DNA from: Lachnospiraceae bacterium
GTDB taxonomy: Bacteria > Bacillota > Clostridia > Lachnospirales > Lachnospiraceae
Assembly (NCBI GenBank): GCA_023663945.1
Contig: JAMPGL010000017.1
Coordinates: 1 to 64,000, forward strand
DNA: 64,000 nt
Direction of reading: 5' to 3'
The stretch's first letter is position 1; each line of letters begins with the position of its first letter. Shown here in pieces: positions 17,764 to 25,827 of this stretch. Under the pieces are notes generated by a model. It was not told the DNA's origin. It made no database searches and saw only the letters and a list, made by a program, of their open reading frames with translations. The position numbers and the translations under genes were made by a program.

Positions 17764-19428
17764 TCACGATAATACTTCAACCCTGCAATTATGTTCCTTT
17801 GTTTTTCTATTATAACTGATGCCAACCGCCAAAATCCGTCCAATGCCCTCTGACTCTTTCCCCAGCCTTCCTTTAAAGCATAACGCATAAGCTTTATCCT
17901 TAATCTGGGCAACCGCCTCTTCCGGCGTGCCGTCCACCTTCAGCTCGAGAATGATGCCGTCCTCCCCTTTTCTCTCAGGATAAAAAACAAAATCAACAAA
18001 ACCCTTTCCAGCCCTGTCTTCCCTCACAACACGGTACTTGTTCCTTGCAGAAAGATAACACAAGTTTACCACTGCCGCCAGCTCCACCTCATTGTTGTAA
18101 GACAAAATGGGCGACTCCGTATTATGAGCAAATTGAAGGATCTCCTCCATAACCTTGGTATCGCCGGCAATGGTTGCCTGAAGCATTTGCTCCGATTTCT
18201 TTGCAAGTGCATATACATATCCCAAAGAATCTCTGGATAACAACAGTTCGTTAAATTTATCCATCAACTCCTTATTCGGTATCAGGACTTCGCCATTTTC
18301 ATAAGTAAGAAGCCCATAAACCACCATAGCCGAATAAATCTGTTCCTTTGAATGTATTTCCATGGAAACGGCTGAAAACTGTCCAATATCTACCGGAACG
18401 CGTTCTCCTGATACCAAAAGGATTAAGTCCTCCCTGACGCCTTCAATATTGTGCCGAATATAATAAAATAACTCATCATACGGTCCCGAACTGATCCAAT
18501 AATTCCGAAGCTGATTATCGGTCAATGCCAGAACCACTGAACGCGGATTATAAAGCTGGACACCTGTGGCAGCATAATACCCGTCATACCAGATGCGCAA
18601 TTCCTCACGGCTGAACTTAGGAACCCGAATTTCTCTCTGATAGACTTTATAAAGGCAGTCTACCTCCTCGTCCGAAAAGCCAAAATATCCGCTAAACTTC
18701 TCTGATGTTGCCATATCATATTCCACAAACATATTCAATTCCGAACCGCTGGAATATTTTTCAATTGGAATAACACCTGTCATATATACAAATTCTACAT
18801 AAGGCTGGTCTTTCAAAAGCCATTTCAAAAACAAAAGATATTCCTTTTGATTCTCCGCAGTAATAAACGGCATATGAAAAATCGCATCCCACTCATCAAG
18901 CACAAAAACAAACCTGCTGTCTGTATGTTCATAAATTTTTTGCAAAGCATCCCATACGGAATCTCCCTCTCCGATACCGCTGTCTGCATAGACGGTCATC
19001 AAATCAGCTATAATCCCATTTTCAATGCGCTCTATATAACGCCTGTAGTCCTCACAGTTTTGAGGCGCCCGGCTGAAATCTATGAAAATAACATCATGCC
19101 TGTTCCTATGGGATTCGTATGCTTCATTTCCGGAAATCGCCAAATCATCAAACAGCCTGTCTTCCCTGCTGGTTCTGCCCAAAAAAGCGCCTACCATATT
19201 TGCCATTACGGTTTTGCCAAAACGGCGGGGTCTTGTGATACAGCAGTAACAATTTGCGCTTCCAAAATATGGCATCAGTTCAGCTATCAGCAAAGATTTA
19301 TCGACAAAATATGGATTCTGCTTTATTTTTTTGTATGCTTCATACGGCGCTTTGCTGTTTAAAAACATTCCCATGCAATAATCCCCTTCCGCTAATCCTC
19401 TGATTGCCAATGATCTGTAGTCTTCCAT
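17764..19428 (-). CDS. AAA-ATPase-like / DUF1703 (PD-(D/E)XK) protein
   Basis: This 554-aa protein belongs to a family that is expanded in Clostridia and Bacteroidetes (AAA-ATPase_like, PF09820, with DUF1703). The N-terminal part has PYFVDKSLLI and the P-loop RPRRFGKT (about residues 65-72), then the Walker B-like FVLDEWDAIF. The C-terminal part is a PD-(D/E)XK nuclease-like fold (GFVDFVFYP ... IILELK). The biological role of the family is unknown; mobile-element or defence links have been suggested. It appears complete. Confidence 0.8.
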   Translation of the reverse strand: MEDYRSLAIRGLAEGDYCMGMFLNSKAPYEAYKKIKQNPYFVDKSLLIAELMPYFGSANCYCCITRPRRFGKTVMANMVGAFLGRTSREDRLFDDLAISGNEAYESHRNRHDVIFIDFSRAPQNCEDYRRYIERIENGIIADLMTVYADSGIGEGDSVWDALQKIYEHTDSRFVFVLDEWDAIFHMPFITAENQKEYLLFLKWLLKDQPYVEFVYMTGVIPIEKYSSGSELNMFVEYDMATSEKFSGYFGFSDEEVDCLYKVYQREIRVPKFSREELRIWYDGYYAATGVQLYNPRSVVLALTDNQLRNYWISSGPYDELFYYIRHNIEGVREDLILLVSGERVPVDIGQFSAVSMEIHSKEQIYSAMVVYGLLTYENGEVLIPNKELMDKFNELLLSRDSLGYVYALAKKSEQMLQATIAGDTKVMEEILQFAHNTESPILSYNNEVELAAVVNLCYLSARNKYRVVREDRAGKGFVDFVFYPERKGEDGIILELKVDGTPEEAVAQIKDKAYALCFKGRLGKESEGIGRILAVGISYNRKTKEHNCRVEVLS

Positions 19429-19665: not shown

Positions 19666-20268
19666 ATGAGAAGATTTGATTATTCAGCCATTAAAGAGCA
19701 GAAATGGGATTCGGACATTCTTGGACTTGTCGCAGCTATTTATAAATATGCGGGAAAACAGGAACTTTATCTCAAACAAAAGCCGAACGAACTTGAAAGG
19801 CTTGTGGAAATAGCAAAAGTACAGAGTACCGAGGCATCTAATGCCATCGAGGGTATTGTGACTACCAATACCAGAATAAGGCAGTTAGTGGAAGAAAAGA
19901 CCACACCGAGGAACCGTGATGAGCAGGAAATTGCGGGCTATCGTGATGTGTTAAATGTTATTCATGAAAGTTTTGACGCAATTCCTGTCACTAGGAACTA
20001 TATTCTTCAGTTGCATAAGATACTTTACAGTCATATGAATAATCCTATTGCAGGTCAGACTAAGAACGTGCAGAATTATATCAGCGCAACCTATTCGGAT
20101 GGACATACGGAGGTGCTTTTTACGCCGCTTGCACCATATGAAACACCCGAAGCGCTTGATAGAATCTGTGATGAATATAATCGTGTCATCGGAAACTTTG
20201 AGGTGGAACCGCTTATCGTCATACCGATTTTTATACATGATATTCTTTGCATACATCCGTTTAACGAT
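19666..20268 (+). pseudogene. fic, 5' part (Fic-family AMP-transferase, interrupted)
   Basis: Fic proteins transfer AMP to target proteins. This part holds the N-terminal Fic_N domain with the inhibitory helix motif SNAIEG (about residues 60-65, the (S/T)xxxEG type) and the first half of the Fic domain up to HPFND (about 197-201). The reading frame then enters the mobile element and stops 3 codons later at 20277. The rest of the motif, GNGRMSR, resumes at 23545. Joining at the shared GAT gives HPFNDGNGRMSR, the complete active site. As it stands the gene cannot make active Fic, but precise excision would restore it. Confidence 0.9.
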
Positions 20269-20340
20269 AAACTATAAACACAAGTCAAAGATATACATTG
20301 TGTTTATAGGATAGAAATGTTGCAGTAATCTTTGACTTGA
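20266..20340. other. attL and repeated left-end modules
   Basis: The arm contains two joined modules, CTATAAACACAA (20272-20283) and CAAGTCAAAGAT (20281-20292). Each recurs in inverted orientation further in: TTGTGTTTATAG at 20298-20309 and ATCTTTGACTTG at 20328-20339. The second pair lies directly ahead of the recombinase ribosome site, so the recombinase may bind there and control its own gene. That role is inference. Confidence 0.7.
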
Positions 20341-20366
20341 ATATTAAACAAGTTGGAGGTTTTTTT

Positions 20367-21650
20367 ATGGTTAAAAATGATGTAAGGTATGATGCGATTT
20401 ATTCTCGGCAATCAGTAGATAAGAAAGACAGTGTTTCAATCGAAACACAAATTGATGACTGCAAAAGGTTATGTTCTGATAATCCACGCATTTACAGGGA
20501 TAAAGGTTATAGTGGAAAAAATACAGAAAGACCAGAACTCCAAAGACTGCTTAATGATATTGAATCAGGAATAATCAAAAAAGTTGTTGTTTATAAACTG
20601 GATAGGATTAGTAGAAATATTGCTGATTTTTATAGACTATATGAAATAATGAAAGCAAACGAATGTAATTTTACAAGTTATAATGAACCTTTTGATACTA
20701 CTGATCCCACGGGCGAAACAGTGATGGGAGTTTTGGCTGTATTTGCACAAATGGAACGAAACAATATCAGGACAAGGATAAAAGATAATTATGAATACAG
20801 AATCAGAGATGGACGATGGGCATCTGGTAAGACCTCTTTTGGATTTAAGAATAGAAAGATTGATGGTAAGACAACATTAATTCCTGTTCCTGAAGAAATA
20901 GAAGTTGTGGAGTGGATGTTTAAAACCTATGCTGAAAGCACAAGTATTTCTCTTGGAAATATACAAAGCAGATTAATTGAAAAGAACATAACAGGCCATC
21001 AATCAGAAAAGGGATTCAGCAAAACAACAATAGGCCATATTTTAACAAACCCTGTCTATTGTAGGGCGGATCAACTTTTGTATCAGTATTACCAAACGAA
21101 ATTAATTGAATTTGTAAATCCTCCTGATATGTGGAATGGTGAATATTCTGCGGCTATCGTAGGTAAAAACAATCGTTCTTTGAGAAATGAAAACCTGGAT
21201 GGGATCAAGGTTTATATTACTAATGTACGTGGAATAATTAGCAGTAACACTTTTATCATGGTACAAAAAAGAATGGAAGAAAATTTTGCCATTGCTTCTG
21301 ATAATAGTCCAAATAATAACCTGAAAGAACTGTCTGGATTATTAAAATGTGCAGGGTGTAAGTCTGCTATTAAAATGCAGGCACGGCCAACTTTAACCTG
21401 TACCGGAAGAAGTCAAAAAAGAATTTGCTCTGTATCTTTTAAAGGTTTGAAACTTGAAACTGTGCAGGATAATGTTGCCATACTCATTCAGGAACGACTT
21501 GAAAAACTGAACGAAGAAGTAGAGGAAAAATTCAAAAAAAGAGTAGTTATGGAAAGGGGAATCAAAGAATTAGAAAGACAGTTGAACAATCTGATTGATT
21601 TAATACAATTCAGTGAAAACATTGCCGATAATACCAATATCAAAATATAA
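20367..21650 (+). CDS. Large serine recombinase (possibly truncated)
   Basis: This site-specific recombinase integrates and excises the element. The N-terminal resolvase domain includes YSRQS with the catalytic Ser (about residue 12), VVYKLDRISRN and a block ending in QMERNNIRTRI. A Recombinase domain (about 150-290) is followed by a zinc ribbon (LKCAGCKSAI ... CTGRSQKRICSV) and a coiled coil. GGAGG precedes the ATG. The frame stops at TAA (21648-21650) in the coiled coil, and the next codon in the same frame is ATG. At 427 aa it is shorter than most relatives, so a nonsense change or a natural split is likely. Confidence 0.88.
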   Translation: MVKNDVRYDAIYSRQSVDKKDSVSIETQIDDCKRLCSDNPRIYRDKGYSGKNTERPELQRLLNDIESGIIKKVVVYKLDRISRNIADFYRLYEIMKANECNFTSYNEPFDTTDPTGETVMGVLAVFAQMERNNIRTRIKDNYEYRIRDGRWASGKTSFGFKNRKIDGKTTLIPVPEEIEVVEWMFKTYAESTSISLGNIQSRLIEKNITGHQSEKGFSKTTIGHILTNPVYCRADQLLYQYYQTKLIEFVNPPDMWNGEYSAAIVGKNNRSLRNENLDGIKVYITNVRGIISSNTFIMVQKRMEENFAIASDNSPNNNLKELSGLLKCAGCKSAIKMQARPTLTCTGRSQKRICSVSFKGLKLETVQDNVAILIQERLEKLNEEVEEKFKKRVVMERGIKELERQLNNLIDLIQFSENIADNTNIKI

Positions 21651-22058
21651 ATGGATTCACTCATTGTCAAAATCAAAGATAAACAGTTGAAATTAAAGAC
21701 AGATAATGCAAGAGACATTATTTCTTTGCGGCTGGGAGGTGGGGCACAACAAGGTAACTTCATTCCTGATATATTTGATGAAAATGGAAAGGTAAGAATA
21801 AAATATTTTGTCTTGGAGATTGATGATCCGGAAGTCTATAAAAAATGTGTGGATGGGATTCAAAATAAATTTGACAATATGTGTAAGAGAGAATTGTATT
21901 CTAAGTTTCACAACGATAATATTCCAAAAGAGGAACAAGAAAAAGCACGCCTGGAGTATTTAGACAGGGCTGGTGTTCCAGACAGTTTCAGGTGGGGAAA
22001 CAATTCAAATTGCAATCAAGAGAAAGCGATACAAGCAGAGGATGACAGAGCATTATGA
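21651..22058 (+). CDS. In-frame continuation of the recombinase frame, 135 aa
   Basis: This frame begins with ATG directly after the recombinase stop (TAAATG) and in the same phase. Its first 25 residues (SLIVKIKDKQLKLKTDN) continue the coiled-coil pattern, so it may be the recombinase tail, made by readthrough or by reinitiation, or lost through a stop mutation. The rest, ending LEYLDRAGVPDSFRWGN and an acidic tail, is not recognised. No separate ribosome site of any strength is seen. Confidence 0.5.
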   Translation: MDSLIVKIKDKQLKLKTDNARDIISLRLGGGAQQGNFIPDIFDENGKVRIKYFVLEIDDPEVYKKCVDGIQNKFDNMCKRELYSKFHNDNIPKEEQEKARLEYLDRAGVPDSFRWGNNSNCNQEKAIQAEDDRAL

Positions 22059-22095
22059 CAGGCTGCAAAAAGATAGTTTTTTCCTTTGATGTTAT

Positions 22096-22506
22096 ATGCG
22101 TCCCCGTGCACGGGGACGCCAGTATAAAGTAGCAGCAGACGATCCAGCAGATAGATCACAGTCAAGCGATACGATACAACAATATAAACTCAAACAAGAT
22201 AAAATTAAAGAGCTTGATAATCAAATACAAAAAGAAACAAAGATACTTTGTGATATTCTCAATGAGCATTTTTCACAAATGGGTGACATACAAAGACAAC
22301 AAAGGCTTGCCAAAAATAACCTAAAAAAGGTATCAAATAAGTTAGAAGAAGCAAAAGAGATTTTGGCTTATTACGATAATATTTTTGATGAAATCAAATA
22401 TGAATTAGATTCAGAATATGAACAATATCTTTATAGTTTGACTATTGCACATGATTACTTATACCAGTTAGAGCAGACATTAAATGAAGATGAACAAGAA
22501 TTATAA
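22096..22506 (+). CDS. Hypothetical coiled-coil protein in the element
   Basis: I do not recognise this frame of up to 136 aa. After an odd start (MRPRARGRQYK, read through a 22-bp palindrome) the sequence is rich in Lys, Glu and Gln with heptad spacing (KQDKIKELDNQIQKETKIL, KNNLKKVSNKLEEAKEIL), so a coiled coil is likely. The true start may be further in. A terminator hairpin follows the stop within 16 bp, which supports real transcription of this strand. Confidence 0.45.
   Translation: MRPRARGRQYKVAADDPADRSQSSDTIQQYKLKQDKIKELDNQIQKETKILCDILNEHFSQMGDIQRQQRLAKNNLKKVSNKLEEAKEILAYYDNIFDEIKYELDSEYEQYLYSLTIAHDYLYQLEQTLNEDEQEL
22098..22119. repeat. Perfect 22-bp GC-rich palindrome
   Basis: GCGTCCCCGTG is followed directly by its reverse complement, with no loop. 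It is much richer in G+C than the surrounding element. It is a single copy, without a T-run, so it is neither a CRISPR array nor a standard terminator. A protein-binding or nicking site is possible. Confidence 0.6.
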
Positions 22507-22521
22507 TATACTAACAATAAT

Positions 22522-22551
22522 AAGGGATTGATGATTTTTAATCAATCCCTT
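22522..22551. terminator. Terminator hairpin after the coiled-coil frame
   Basis: AAGGGATTGAT and ATCAATCCCTT form 11-bp arms around an 8-base loop, 15 bp beyond the stop codon at 22506. It lies between two converging genes (the coiled-coil frame and the HIT gene). The T-run is weak. Confidence 0.55.
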
Positions 22552-22590
22552 GATTGCTTATACTATTAGTTTGACAAACTGGAAGTTGTT

Positions 22591-23049
22591 TTACAATAGA
22601 TTATTCAATTCTTCTAATAATTTCGATTTCATTTCTTCCAATTCCGTGTCTGAAGGTCTGTTATCATCAGAATACATCTTTTCCATTGGATACCACCAAA
22701 CAGGACCTTTACCATTATTTCCATAATTTCCTATATCGCCGTTCACTCTGGGGAATAAATGCCAATGCAGATGTGATTCTCCCATCCCCAATAATTCACA
22801 GTTCATTTTCTCTGCCGCAAATGCCATAGATATAGCTTCTGCTACAAGTGACATTTCTTCTAAAAATTTCATCTTATATGAGTAGTCTAGTTGAAATAGT
22901 TCTGCCTTATGCTCTTTACATAGAAATAAGGAATATCCTTTAAAATGTTGATGATCCCCAATAACGACATATCCTGTTTCTAATTCCTTTACAAAATATG
23001 GGTTCTTTCCGCTTTTTATCATATTTATTCTATCGCAAACAAGGCACAT
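22591..23049 (-). CDS. HIT-family nucleotide hydrolase/transferase
   Basis: HIT proteins hydrolyse or transfer nucleotidyl groups through a His triad. In this 152-aa protein the triad is HLHWHLF (about residues 93-99), with an N-terminal CLVCDRI that could bind zinc and FKGYSLFLCKEH further on. The C-terminus (DTELEEMKSKLLEELNNLL) is helical. It faces the recombinase within the element, so it is cargo. GGAGGGAGAAG precedes the ATG. A link between a HIT enzyme and Fic-type AMPylation is tempting but unproven. Confidence 0.85.
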   Translation of the reverse strand: MCLVCDRINMIKSGKNPYFVKELETGYVVIGDHQHFKGYSLFLCKEHKAELFQLDYSYKMKFLEEMSLVAEAISMAFAAEKMNCELLGMGESHLHWHLFPRVNGDIGNYGNNGKGPVWWYPMEKMYSDDNRPSDTELEEMKSKLLEELNNLL

Positions 23050-23218
23050 ACTTCTCCCTCCAAATTCCGATTTGGCAACATCATTATATTAATACAAAAC
23101 AGCGAAAAAATCTATATTAATATATTACTTGCATTACGAAAATTTTACTATTTAAAATAAACCATATTATAAATGAAATAATAGGAGCATAGTAAAAGAT
23201 TGATTTTTCTTTTGATTA

Positions 23219-23250
23219 AAAAAATAGGGGCGTTGCGCCCCTATTTTTTA
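23219..23250. terminator. Strong bidirectional terminator
   Basis: AAAAAATAGGGGCG and CGCCCCTATTTTTT form a 14-bp stem around a TTG loop, with A and T runs on the two sides, so it can work in both directions. It lies in the 270-bp space between the HIT gene and the DUF7695 gene. The rest of that space is AT-rich without a gene. Confidence 0.85.
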
Positions 23251-23320
23251 TAGTGGTATTTTGAGATAAAATATACTATAATACAAATTACAAGTAGAAA
23301 TATTGGAATGGTGGTATAAA

Positions 23321-23524
23321 ATGCAAAAGATAGTTAGAAATATGATTAAATGTAATCTATGTGGTGATGTTATAGAATCAACATATAGACATGATTTCGT
23401 GACCTGCAAATGTGGCTGCTGTTCTGTTGATGGTGGAAAAGATTATTTGAGAAGAGGTTGCATTCATTCCATGGATGATTTTACAGAATTAAGCATATTT
23501 GAAGATACTAAAAAAAGTCTTTGA
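23321..23524 (+). CDS. Small zinc-ribbon-like protein (DUF7695-like)
   Basis: This 67-aa protein has Cys pairs in CNLCGDVIES and CKCGCCSVDGGKDYLRRG, which suggest zinc binding. It resembles a small domain recorded as DUF7695; I am fairly, not fully, sure of that name. GGTGG lies 5 bases ahead of the ATG. Its stop codon (TGA at 23522-23524) lies inside the right att arm, so it is the last cargo gene and its C-terminus depends on the arm sequence. Function unknown. Confidence 0.65.
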   Translation: MQKIVRNMIKCNLCGDVIESTYRHDFVTCKCGCCSVDGGKDYLRRGCIHSMDDFTELSIFEDTKKSL

Positions 23525-23544
23525 CTTATGTTCATAGTTGTGAT
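23518..23544. other. attR
   Basis: The right arm, starting TCTTTGACTTATGTTCATAG, runs up to TTGTGAT, ending at the GAT shared with attL. It is the inverted partner of 20270-20291, with two differences, and it meets the resumed fic coding sequence. Confidence 0.85.
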
Positions 23545-23988
23545 GGGAATGGCAGAATGAGCAGATTACTTACTACATTACTTTTATATCGCAACGGTTT
23601 TTATGTAGGTAAATATATTTCTTTGGAGGCAAAGATAGCAAAGAATAAAGATTTATATTATGATGCTCTTGGACGGTCTCAGGACGGATGGCACAAAGGT
23701 ATTGAGGACGTTGTGCCTTTTATTAAATATTTATTAGGCACAATCCTTGCGGCATATAAGGACTTTGAGGACAGATTTTTAATTGTGGAAAAAAAGCTTC
23801 CTGCTGTAGATATTGTCAGAAAGGCAACACGAAATAAAATCGGGAAATTTACAAAACAAGATATTAGAGAGCTGTGCCCGTCGCTTAGTGTAAGTTCTAT
23901 TGAAGGGGCGCTTCGAAAGTTGGTAAAGGGAGGAGAATTAGAAAGAGCAGGTTCGGGAAAAAGAACATACTATGTTCGTTTAAAATAA
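23542..23988 (+). pseudogene. fic, 3' part (Fic motif end and winged helix)
   Basis: This is the second half of the interrupted fic gene. Starting from the Asp codon it reads DGNGRMSRLLTTLLLY, the end of the Fic active-site motif. A helical region and a C-terminal winged helix (NKIGKFTKQDIRELCPSLSVSSIEGALRKLVKGGELER) follow. With the 5' part it makes a protein of about 348 aa, normal for the Fic/wHTH group. It has no start codon of its own with a convincing ribosome site. The reading frame is otherwise intact, so the insertion appears recent or the gene is kept by occasional excision. Confidence 0.9.
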
Positions 23989-24366: not shown

Positions 24367-25827
24367 TTACATTTTCCCGTTTTGTCCGTCTGCTTCTATC
24401 TTTCCCAAAAGATACAAGAAGGCAATTGCAGGAACCCGTAAAATCGGTACTTGCGTTTTATGCTTTACAATTCCAAAATCCTCTAATTGCTTTGTAATCA
24501 AAAATGCGCTTGTCACTCTTGATTCTTCGTCACTGCAAAGCTCCACAATCGCGTCCGAAGCAGGGATGTGTGAATGATTGCGGTATTTGACTTCACACAA
24601 AATTTTTTCACGGGGAAGTTCTATCACAACATCGACCTCTTTCTGGTTATTCTTTGCTTTTCTGAAATAACCGAGTTGTACCGTACTACCTTGATAAAAA
24701 GACGCAATATGTTTATAAACCGCTGTTTCCACCATAACGCCAAGCTCTTTTTCATCTGAAAGAACATCCTCGATCATCAGTACTGCATTGCGGATAGCCG
24801 CATCTGCAATAAAGATTTTGGGTCTGCCTTTTAAGGCGCCTTTACTGCCTACATCCATCGGCTTTGCAAGATAAATTAGATTTGACATTTCCAAGGCTTC
24901 AATGTAACTGTCAATCGTAGCGGCAGAAATATTCTCTAACTCCTTTGCCGCCGTGGTCACGCTGAAAATCTCCGCAGACTTCATGCAGAGGTACAAAAAT
25001 AGCTTTTCTATTAAAAGCGGGCTCCGAATATTGAATAAGGTAAGAACATCCCGTTTAATAACCTTGTCAACCACATCCTCCCGCAGCATTCTCTGAGCAT
25101 AAATATCATCGTCAGACAATACAAGCTCTGGAAAGCCTCCAATCATAAGGTAACGATTGAAGTGTCCTTCAAGCGGTGCAAATTTATCCATCAAATTGCC
25201 AAGTTCCGCATTCGTCATTTTTACAAGCTTTGTAAGCTTCAAATTGTCCGGCAGTGTCAACTCGTCAAGCTCCAATAACCTGCAATACTCATAAAATGAC
25301 AAAGTAGGTATCTTTAGGACGCTCCACCTGCCTGTACCGCTGTCCGATGCACCTTTTTCGAGAATCGGGCTTGCTGAACCAGTTGCAGTGAGGCGGATAT
25401 CCTTTCTGCTGTCATAGATAACCTTCATCCACAACTCCCAATTATCTGTATATTGAATTTCATCAAGAAAAATATAGCGTATCCCTGCAACGGGATAAAG
25501 CTGTCCATAAATAGAAAGAACGCTCTCCACATCAACAAGCTTTATAATCGGATTATCAAAGGACACATAAAGGATATTCTGGGGAGTAACGCCCTCATCC
25601 ATCAGGCTGTCTATCATTTGATACATAATCGTTGTCTTGCCGACACGCCTTGCACCGGATAATACGGCAAATCGTCTGAGTGATTTATGCTTTATTATTT
25701 TAAGCGCTTCATAATAGGCAAGCCTTTTCTGCGGCTTGCTCTCTTCTTTGATTGCAGATGGATTTCTCCACCATGGATTATACTGCCGTAAAACCTTAAT
25801 GACCTGTTCATCGCTTACAATCGCCAT
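24367..25827 (-). CDS. AAA_14/DUF4143 ATPase with nuclease-like C-terminus
   Basis: This 486-aa protein belongs to the widespread archaeal-type AAA ATPases with a DUF4143 tail. The P-loop is SGARRVGKTT (about residues 57-66) and Walker B YIFLDEIQY. A winged-helix region around 270-310 precedes DUF4143. The C-terminal KEVDVVIELPREKILCEVKYR matches a PD-(D/E)XK core. Function is unknown for the family. GGTG lies 6 bases ahead of the ATG. A perfect 17-bp inverted repeat lies 28 bp upstream of the start, a likely operator. Confidence 0.82.
   Translation of the reverse strand: MAIVSDEQVIKVLRQYNPWWRNPSAIKEESKPQKRLAYYEALKIIKHKSLRRFAVLSGARRVGKTTIMYQMIDSLMDEGVTPQNILYVSFDNPIIKLVDVESVLSIYGQLYPVAGIRYIFLDEIQYTDNWELWMKVIYDSRKDIRLTATGSASPILEKGASDSGTGRWSVLKIPTLSFYEYCRLLELDELTLPDNLKLTKLVKMTNAELGNLMDKFAPLEGHFNRYLMIGGFPELVLSDDDIYAQRMLREDVVDKVIKRDVLTLFNIRSPLLIEKLFLYLCMKSAEIFSVTTAAKELENISAATIDSYIEALEMSNLIYLAKPMDVGSKGALKGRPKIFIADAAIRNAVLMIEDVLSDEKELGVMVETAVYKHIASFYQGSTVQLGYFRKAKNNQKEVDVVIELPREKILCEVKYRNHSHIPASDAIVELCSDEESRVTSAFLITKQLEDFGIVKHKTQVPILRVPAIAFLYLLGKIEADGQNGKM

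What the first reader, a model, noticed from the sequence alone, without database searches (positions are those of the whole stretch)
19666..23988. Serine-recombinase element inserted exactly in the Fic active-site motif, reversible in principle
The element splits HPFN-D-GNGR at the Asp codon. Removing 20269-23544 gives an uninterrupted HPFNDGNGRMSR and a 348-aa Fic protein with no other defect. Targeting the most conserved motif of a widespread protein family guarantees target sites in many hosts. It also makes the element an on/off switch for AMPylation activity, comparable to elements that interrupt sigK or comK. This arrangement with fic is, as far as I know, not described.
Basis: partly seen in the sequence, partly recalled or inferred. 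Interest (0 to 1): 0.85.

Follow-up and report, generated by a model that had tools for sequence, protein, structure and literature searches.

The report
Decayed mobile element splitting fic
A small, partly decayed mobile DNA element sits exactly inside the active-site code of a bacterial Fic gene, put there by a family of integrases that aim at that spot, as the only distantly related integrase TndX also does.

Summary
Confirmed: a SoFic-like fic gene is split at the Asp codon of HPFxDGNGR by a 3,276-bp serine-recombinase element; uninterrupted homologues exist.

Not chance: two recombinase relatives (76%, 57% identical) interrupt other fic genes at the same codon. The shared core is GA, not GAT. 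The ends form mirrored 24-bp arms (20 of 24 identical). An IMG/VR contig is a circle (or tandem copy) of a relative's element with the predicted arm-GA-arm joint.

The switch idea is unsupported: this recombinase has a stop in its coiled coil, the middle is scrambled, and no close recombinase was found in this genome. Most likely a decaying mobilizable element, recently inserted.

'Not described' is wrong: Tn5397/TndX is known to target Fic-coding DNA. TndX-type elements in a congeneric genome and on Enterococcus plasmids end at this same codon. The window recombinase is about 25% identical to TndX and a tree rejects one clade of both: two integrase lineages appear to have converged on one dinucleotide. 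The DUF7695 gene beside the attachment site is a candidate directionality factor.

The parts
19666..20268 (+). fic 5' half (201 codons, ends HPFND); the frame runs on into the element to a stop at 20277
   Evidence: Pfam Fic 8.1e-9, PADLOC SoFic 8.3e-20, PDB Fido protein 8uqu 1.4e-40
20266..20291 (+). left attachment site: core GA (20266-20267) plus left arm TAAACTATAAACACAAGTCAAAGA
20367..21650 (+). serine recombinase, 427 aa, catalytic + recombinase + weak zinc-ribbon match; in-frame TAA 21648-21650 in the coiled-coil region
21651..21806 (+). remnant of the recombinase C-terminus in the same frame (about 52 codons, 50% identical to G397), then sequence without a match in G397 or G335
22096..22506 (+). 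fragment resembling the C-terminal part of a Mob_Pre relaxase (44% over 87 aa to the L114 relaxase)
22591..23049 (-). HIT-family protein, probable cargo
23321..23524 (+). DUF7695 protein (67 aa), last gene before the right end; a homologue stands in the same place in G397, G335 and L133
23518..23543 (-). right attachment site: right arm (23518-23541, mirror of the left arm) plus core GA (23542-23543)
23542..23988 (+). fic 3' half (from the shared Asp codon, GNGRMSR...)

Best explanation
The feature is the remnant of an integrative mobilizable element. Its large serine recombinase lineage recognises the DNA coding for the Fic motif HPFx(D)GNG, cuts at a central GA in the Asp codon and inserts the circular element there. 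Shown: exact junctions, mirrored arms, two relatives at the same codon in other fic genes, and a natural circle (or tandem copy) of a close relative with the joined site. Inferred: integration ended this fic gene's AMPylation, because the left piece keeps the His but loses GNGR. This copy later (or beforehand) lost its relaxase and middle, and its recombinase gained a stop. It is therefore most likely fixed, or excisable only with help in trans, and is not a programmed switch.
For: fic halves contiguous in two congeneric genomes. A fic 5' half lies immediately upstream of the recombinase in L008 and L019, the two closest of 46 recombinase loci compared by tblastn; 0 of the other 44. Fic 3' halves found at the other ends: G397 C2:40271, G335 C6:182552. 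Core GA. Arms. Circle: 127-bp exact terminal repeat, joint at 180. Recombinase clade supported 100/99 among 66 rows. Truncation against 499-507-aa relatives. G397 has a relaxase and a coupling protein, G335 a Mob_Pre match. Fic halves are about as far from congeners in amino-acid-changing sites as the congeners are from each other, so the insertion looks recent.
Against: No strain-level empty site: outside fic, the 12-kb stretches of G419 and G404 gave no DNA match to the window's 10-34 kb beyond some 85 bp upstream of fic in G404. No reads. The stop could be an assembly error. A truncated coiled coil need not kill excision: a coiled-coil-less Listeria integrase excised promiscuously within one molecule but could not integrate (PMC3783163, section read).
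Confidence: 0.86

Rival explanations
1. Regulated switch: the element is kept in fic as a programmed interruption, excised to turn AMPylation on, like skin in sigK.
For: Precise insertion; fic halves without stops; a circle of a relative exists.
Against: Recombinase stop and scrambled middle; no close recombinase elsewhere in the genome; length and cargo differ between the window, G397, G335 and L133, unlike a domesticated unit.
Confidence: 0.06
2. Excision-only state: the stop in the coiled coil leaves a recombinase that can still excise (without a directionality factor) but no longer integrate, so the element is being lost.
For: A coiled-coil deletion of Listeria integrase behaves so; the catalytic and recombinase parts, the zinc-ribbon cysteines and both att sites are retained here.
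Against: An unregulated excision enzyme should already have removed the element; the truncation also removes what lies behind the coiled coil, which the Listeria deletion kept.
Confidence: 0.12
3. Non-autonomous passenger: a defective element was mobilised and inserted in trans by a complete relative.
For: Recent insertion by fic divergence, yet the element is decayed; arms intact.
Against: No complete relative in this genome (assembly about 94% complete); arms occur only as one pair.
Confidence: 0.3

Closest known systems
Tn5397 / TndX (conjugative transposon, Clostridioides difficile)
   Same: Large serine recombinase; central GA; inserts in Fic-coding DNA (PMC4430133). A 69%-identical recombinase in G424 (same genus) and TndX on Enterococcus plasmids end at the same motif codon (right junctions only).
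   Different: Window recombinase about 25% identical to TndX, no DUF4368 in it or in its full-length relatives, separate clade (AU test p 4e-71); small mobilizable element.
Serine-integrase IMEs of Firmicutes (Tn4451 type; rumA, traG, maff2, snf2 targets)
   Same: Serine integrase, 2-bp core (Tn4451), gene disruption, mobilization genes (PMC5704250 and PMC5357655, passages).
   Different: Target is fic; the word fic does not occur in either paper's main text.
skin element in sigK
   Same: Serine recombinase element splitting a gene; in C. difficile a 72-aa directionality factor (PMC5025042, passages).
   Different: No evidence of developmental excision; recombinase truncated.

Membership tests
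Serine-recombinase IME | serine recombinase beside one attachment site | tested here: met
   (truncated here, full length in relatives)
Serine-recombinase IME | 2-bp core (with mirrored arms) | tested here: met
Serine-recombinase IME | own relaxase | tested here: inconclusive
   G397 Relaxase 1e-35, G335 Mob_Pre 6.9e-7; window has only a fragment; the 607-aa candidate of L133 matched no Pfam family at 0.01
Serine-recombinase IME | circular intermediate | tested here: met
   for relative L133 only (tandem copies not excluded), not for the window copy
Tn5397/TndX lineage | DUF4368 and close relation to TndX | tested here: not met
   DUF4368 present in G424's TndX-like protein
Tn5397/TndX lineage | insertion in Fic-coding DNA at GA | tested here: met
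   same codon at the right ends of TndX-type elements
Programmed gene interruption (skin-like) | functional recombinase and regulated excision restoring the gene | tested here: inconclusive
   truncation speaks against; activity not testable with these tools
SoFic-type Fic | Fic motif plus N-terminal inhibitory motif S/TxxxE(G/N) | tested here: met
   SNAIEG and HPFND in the 5' half (motif recalled); PADLOC SoFic 8.3e-20 for the 5' half alone; the NCBIfam SoFic cut-off (550 bits, whole protein) is not reached by either piece (28.4 and 15.2 bits), so equivalence to SoFic is not shown

The most novel reading that the evidence does not exclude
Two only distantly related integrase lineages converged on the same GA because the Fic active-site code is a near-universal landing pad whose loss costs the host little or even disarms an abortive-infection defence (SoFic). 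The new lineage uses the DUF7695 protein, encoded on the attP edge, as its excision factor.
Probability: 0.15. Interest if true: 0.7.

Novelty: new member of a known kind. Interest (0 to 1): 0.5.

Why it matters
It gives a second integrase lineage with the target known for TndX, mapped to the dinucleotide, together with a natural circle and matching attP. That makes the question of how distantly related large serine integrases come to read the same protein-coding motif directly testable, and offers compact recombinase/att pairs. It also shows SoFic-like genes broken by mobile elements repeatedly at one codon.

Tried and rejected
Regulated switch: rejected as leading reading (recombinase stop, decayed middle). 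GAT as core: rejected, G397 shows GA only. DUF7695 as a marker of fic elements: rejected, since 5 other DUF7695 loci (L106-L110) hold no match to the window recombinase within the 10-12 kb fetched; it stays only a candidate excision factor. Defence-gene targeting as a general integrase strategy: a large survey saw no enrichment in or near anti-phage genes (PMC10083194, passages).

Led nowhere: the Fic survey of 250 family genomes listed only the strongest matches, so weak broken copies are invisible in it. IMG/VR scan with the window protein: no relative. With an alignment of four recombinases: 21 loci, only L133 of this clade. Junction-pattern scan of IMG/VR: 0. Arm-pattern scan: 27 contigs, no fic piece. 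Plasmid searches with the two middle ORFs: nothing. Plasmid searches with L133: nothing. The left junction of G424 was not found on its contig. For one Enterococcus plasmid I fetched the upstream region, saw it holds several transposases and tet genes, and did not look for the left junction. Pfam finds no Fic match in fic pieces that begin at or just after the codon (L188, L191, G424, window); L188's piece was identified through PDB sequences, G424's by tblastn, L191's only by its EGNGR motif and likeness to L188. The primary Tn5397 paper (PMC1483006) is not held, so its exact insertion codon in C. difficile was not read.

Recombinase loci were mostly fetched with about 1.5 kb on each side, so a fic half at the far end of an element would be missed. 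Stray motif matches in L022, L044, L096, L140 and L175 have no fic homology by tblastn.

Full report
The observation. In the window a fic reading frame starts at 19666, reads to HPFND and, two codons further on, stops inside foreign DNA (K-L-stop, 20277). The remainder, DGNGRMSRLL..., begins at 23542. Searched apart, the two pieces match intact fic genes of two genomes of the same genus over their whole length and without a gap: G419 86.6% and 85.1%, G404 80.6% and 81.8% identity. In both the pieces overlap by one codon. 21 of 37 genomes of the genus (the window's included) have a match to the 3' half. In G404 the shared codon encodes Asn. The pieces of the window show no stop.

The element. 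Pfam finds Resolvase, Recombinase and a weak zinc ribbon in 20367-21647. Relatives are 499-507 aa, whereas this copy ends at residue 427 in the coiled-coil region (the coiled coil is placed by analogy to known integrases, not by a structure). The frame continues after the TAA for about 52 codons, 50% identical to G397, then turns into sequence without a match. Further on lie a fragment like the C-terminal part of a Mob_Pre relaxase, a HIT protein and a DUF7695 protein of 67 aa. At DNA level the left 1.47 kb and the right 0.22 kb of the element match the two ends of the 13,070-bp G397 element at 74% and 82%; the only other hit there is an 18-base inverted match. The window element thus looks like a shortened relative.

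Site specificity. Of 46 recombinase loci compared by tblastn, the two closest to the window's (L008, a Lachnoclostridium MAG, 76%; L019/G335, 57%) carry a fic 5' half ending HPF(N/A)D immediately before the recombinase; the other 44 show no fic piece. A motif scan of 7 further loci (one already among the 46) and a motif and tblastn scan of 47 IMG/VR loci (20 recombinase matches and 27 arm-pattern matches) gave none. The 3' halves stand at the other ends of the two elements; the element lengths are 13,070 and 8,123 bp. The target genes are different fic genes: the 5' halves are 50% and 35% identical to the window's. Of the next-closest recombinases, L111 and L113 abut a polysaccharide deacetylase gene and L114 a MatE gene. 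Three fic-inserted recombinases plus that of L133 (a circle, so its target is not seen) form a clade with 100/99 support among 66 rows.

Core and arms. attL reads GAT in all three; attR reads GAT, GAC and GAT (window, G397, G335), so only GA is shared throughout. Around GA the 24-bp arms are mirror images at 20/24 (window), 20/24 (G397) and 17/24 (G335, L133) positions, each reached by 0 of 20,000 base shuffles. The arm pattern occurs without mismatch exactly twice in the window's genome, at the two ends. In the 36 other genomes of the genus there are five matches, all with three mismatches, against 17 for the reversed control, so no sign of further copies. A pattern made from the three target sites meets three further sites in the window's genome, with 0, 1 and 2 mismatches (C70, C78, C52), all in Fic-family genes: unused candidate sites by this criterion.

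A natural circle. The contig IMGVR_UViG_3300021256_002785 (L133, 8,448 bp) has a 127-bp exact terminal repeat, that is, an 8,321-bp circle (or tandem copies). Its recombinase is 93% identical to G335's. At position 180 it joins right arm, GA and left arm directly, without fic, which is the attP predicted from G335. It carries an EcoRI-type methylase and an HNH nuclease. So excision occurs in the family. For the window copy it is unproven: the recombinase is truncated and the other nine serine-recombinase matches in its genome are at most 29% identical. A Listeria integrase lacking its coiled coil could excise within one molecule but not integrate (PMC3783163, section read), so loss of excision cannot be taken for granted.

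Age. Amino-acid-changing differences of the window's 5' piece are 0.074 from G419 and 0.116 from G404, against 0.100 between those two; of the 3' piece 0.114 and 0.130 against 0.145. Synonymous sites are close to or beyond saturation. There is no clear excess, so the insertion is recent on that scale although the element is decayed. Either it arrived defective and was inserted in trans, or it decayed fast.

Prior art and convergence. A review reports that Tn5397 inserts through TndX into Fic-coding DNA and that, in B. subtilis, a central GA is always present in its target sites (PMC4430133, section read). In G424, a genome of the same genus, a 537-aa recombinase with DUF4368, 69% identical to annotated TndX, ends directly at a fic 3' half beginning with this codon (GAT). 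Its left junction was not found. On Enterococcus plasmids I looked beyond the end of tndX in four records (annotated tndX in three, an unannotated copy in L191). In L188, L189 and L191 the sequence resumes as GAA-GGN-AAT-GGN, code for EGNG(R), the same motif codon with Glu; the fourth (L190) ends there. L188 and L189 hold the same gene, L191 another. L188's piece matches solved Fic proteins from its first residue (5nv5, 3.4e-41); Pfam does not recognise such 3' pieces. TndX and the window recombinase are about 25% identical, and one clade of both is rejected (p-AU 4e-71, 42 rows). That tree was sampled around the window protein, contains long branches and counts L133 as fic-type by kinship. 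Two lineages using one dinucleotide is therefore best read as convergence; a very old shared specificity is not excluded. The listings of my literature searches (open-access papers only) showed no second fic-targeting lineage, and the primary Tn5397 paper was not available.

Function. The 5' half matches the PADLOC SoFic model (8.3e-20). SoFic is described as a toxic protein causing abortive infection (PMC12249575, abstract and passages). An insertion after HPFND removes GNGR and the C-terminal domain, so loss of AMPylation is expected (inference). Whether disarming such a gene benefits the element is open: a survey of integrase targets saw no enrichment of defence genes. A DUF7695 gene is the last gene before the right arm in the window, G397, G335 and L133, and in the circle it lies just upstream of attP and the recombinase. 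Its size is like the 72-aa excision factor of the C. difficile skin element. This is a lead, not a result: of seven genomes with DUF7695 among 250 (the window's is one, G206 is below the cut-off and was not fetched at length), the five other loci fetched showed no match to the window recombinase nearby.

Verdict.

Noticed in passing
L181 3948-4850 (G402, same genus): A decayed fic gene is broken within about 10 bp of the same codon by a short stretch carrying two ORFs that look like a HicA-HicB pair (name recalled); its right junction resembles G424's TndX-type end (GTGGTATTGCCTGA).
   Followed up: partly
L111, L113, L114: Sister recombinases of the fic lineage abut other genes: a polysaccharide deacetylase (two genomes) and a MatE transporter gene.
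   Followed up: partly
window 17764-19428 and 24367-25827: fic is flanked by an AAA-ATPase/PD-(D/E)XK gene and an AAA_14-DUF4143 gene; the latter matches PADLOC candidate PDC-S01 (2.5e-62).
   Followed up: no
window 22098-22119: Perfect palindrome GCGTCCCCGTGCACGGGGACGC inside the element, at the start of the relaxase fragment; present once in the window.
   Followed up: no
L133: A contig filed in a virus collection (IMG/VR) looks like an excised mobilizable element with an EcoRI-type methylase and an HNH nuclease.
   Followed up: partly
hits H17-H22: Unannotated DUF7695-like frames sit on small plasmids of Pasteurellaceae, 45-47% identical to the window's.
   Followed up: no
L054 (G404): An intact fic has Asn (HPFNNGNGR) at the position of the target Asp.
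   Followed up: no
L003 (G000:C35:2049-2294): Another Fic-family match in this genome holds an internal TAA.
   Followed up: no
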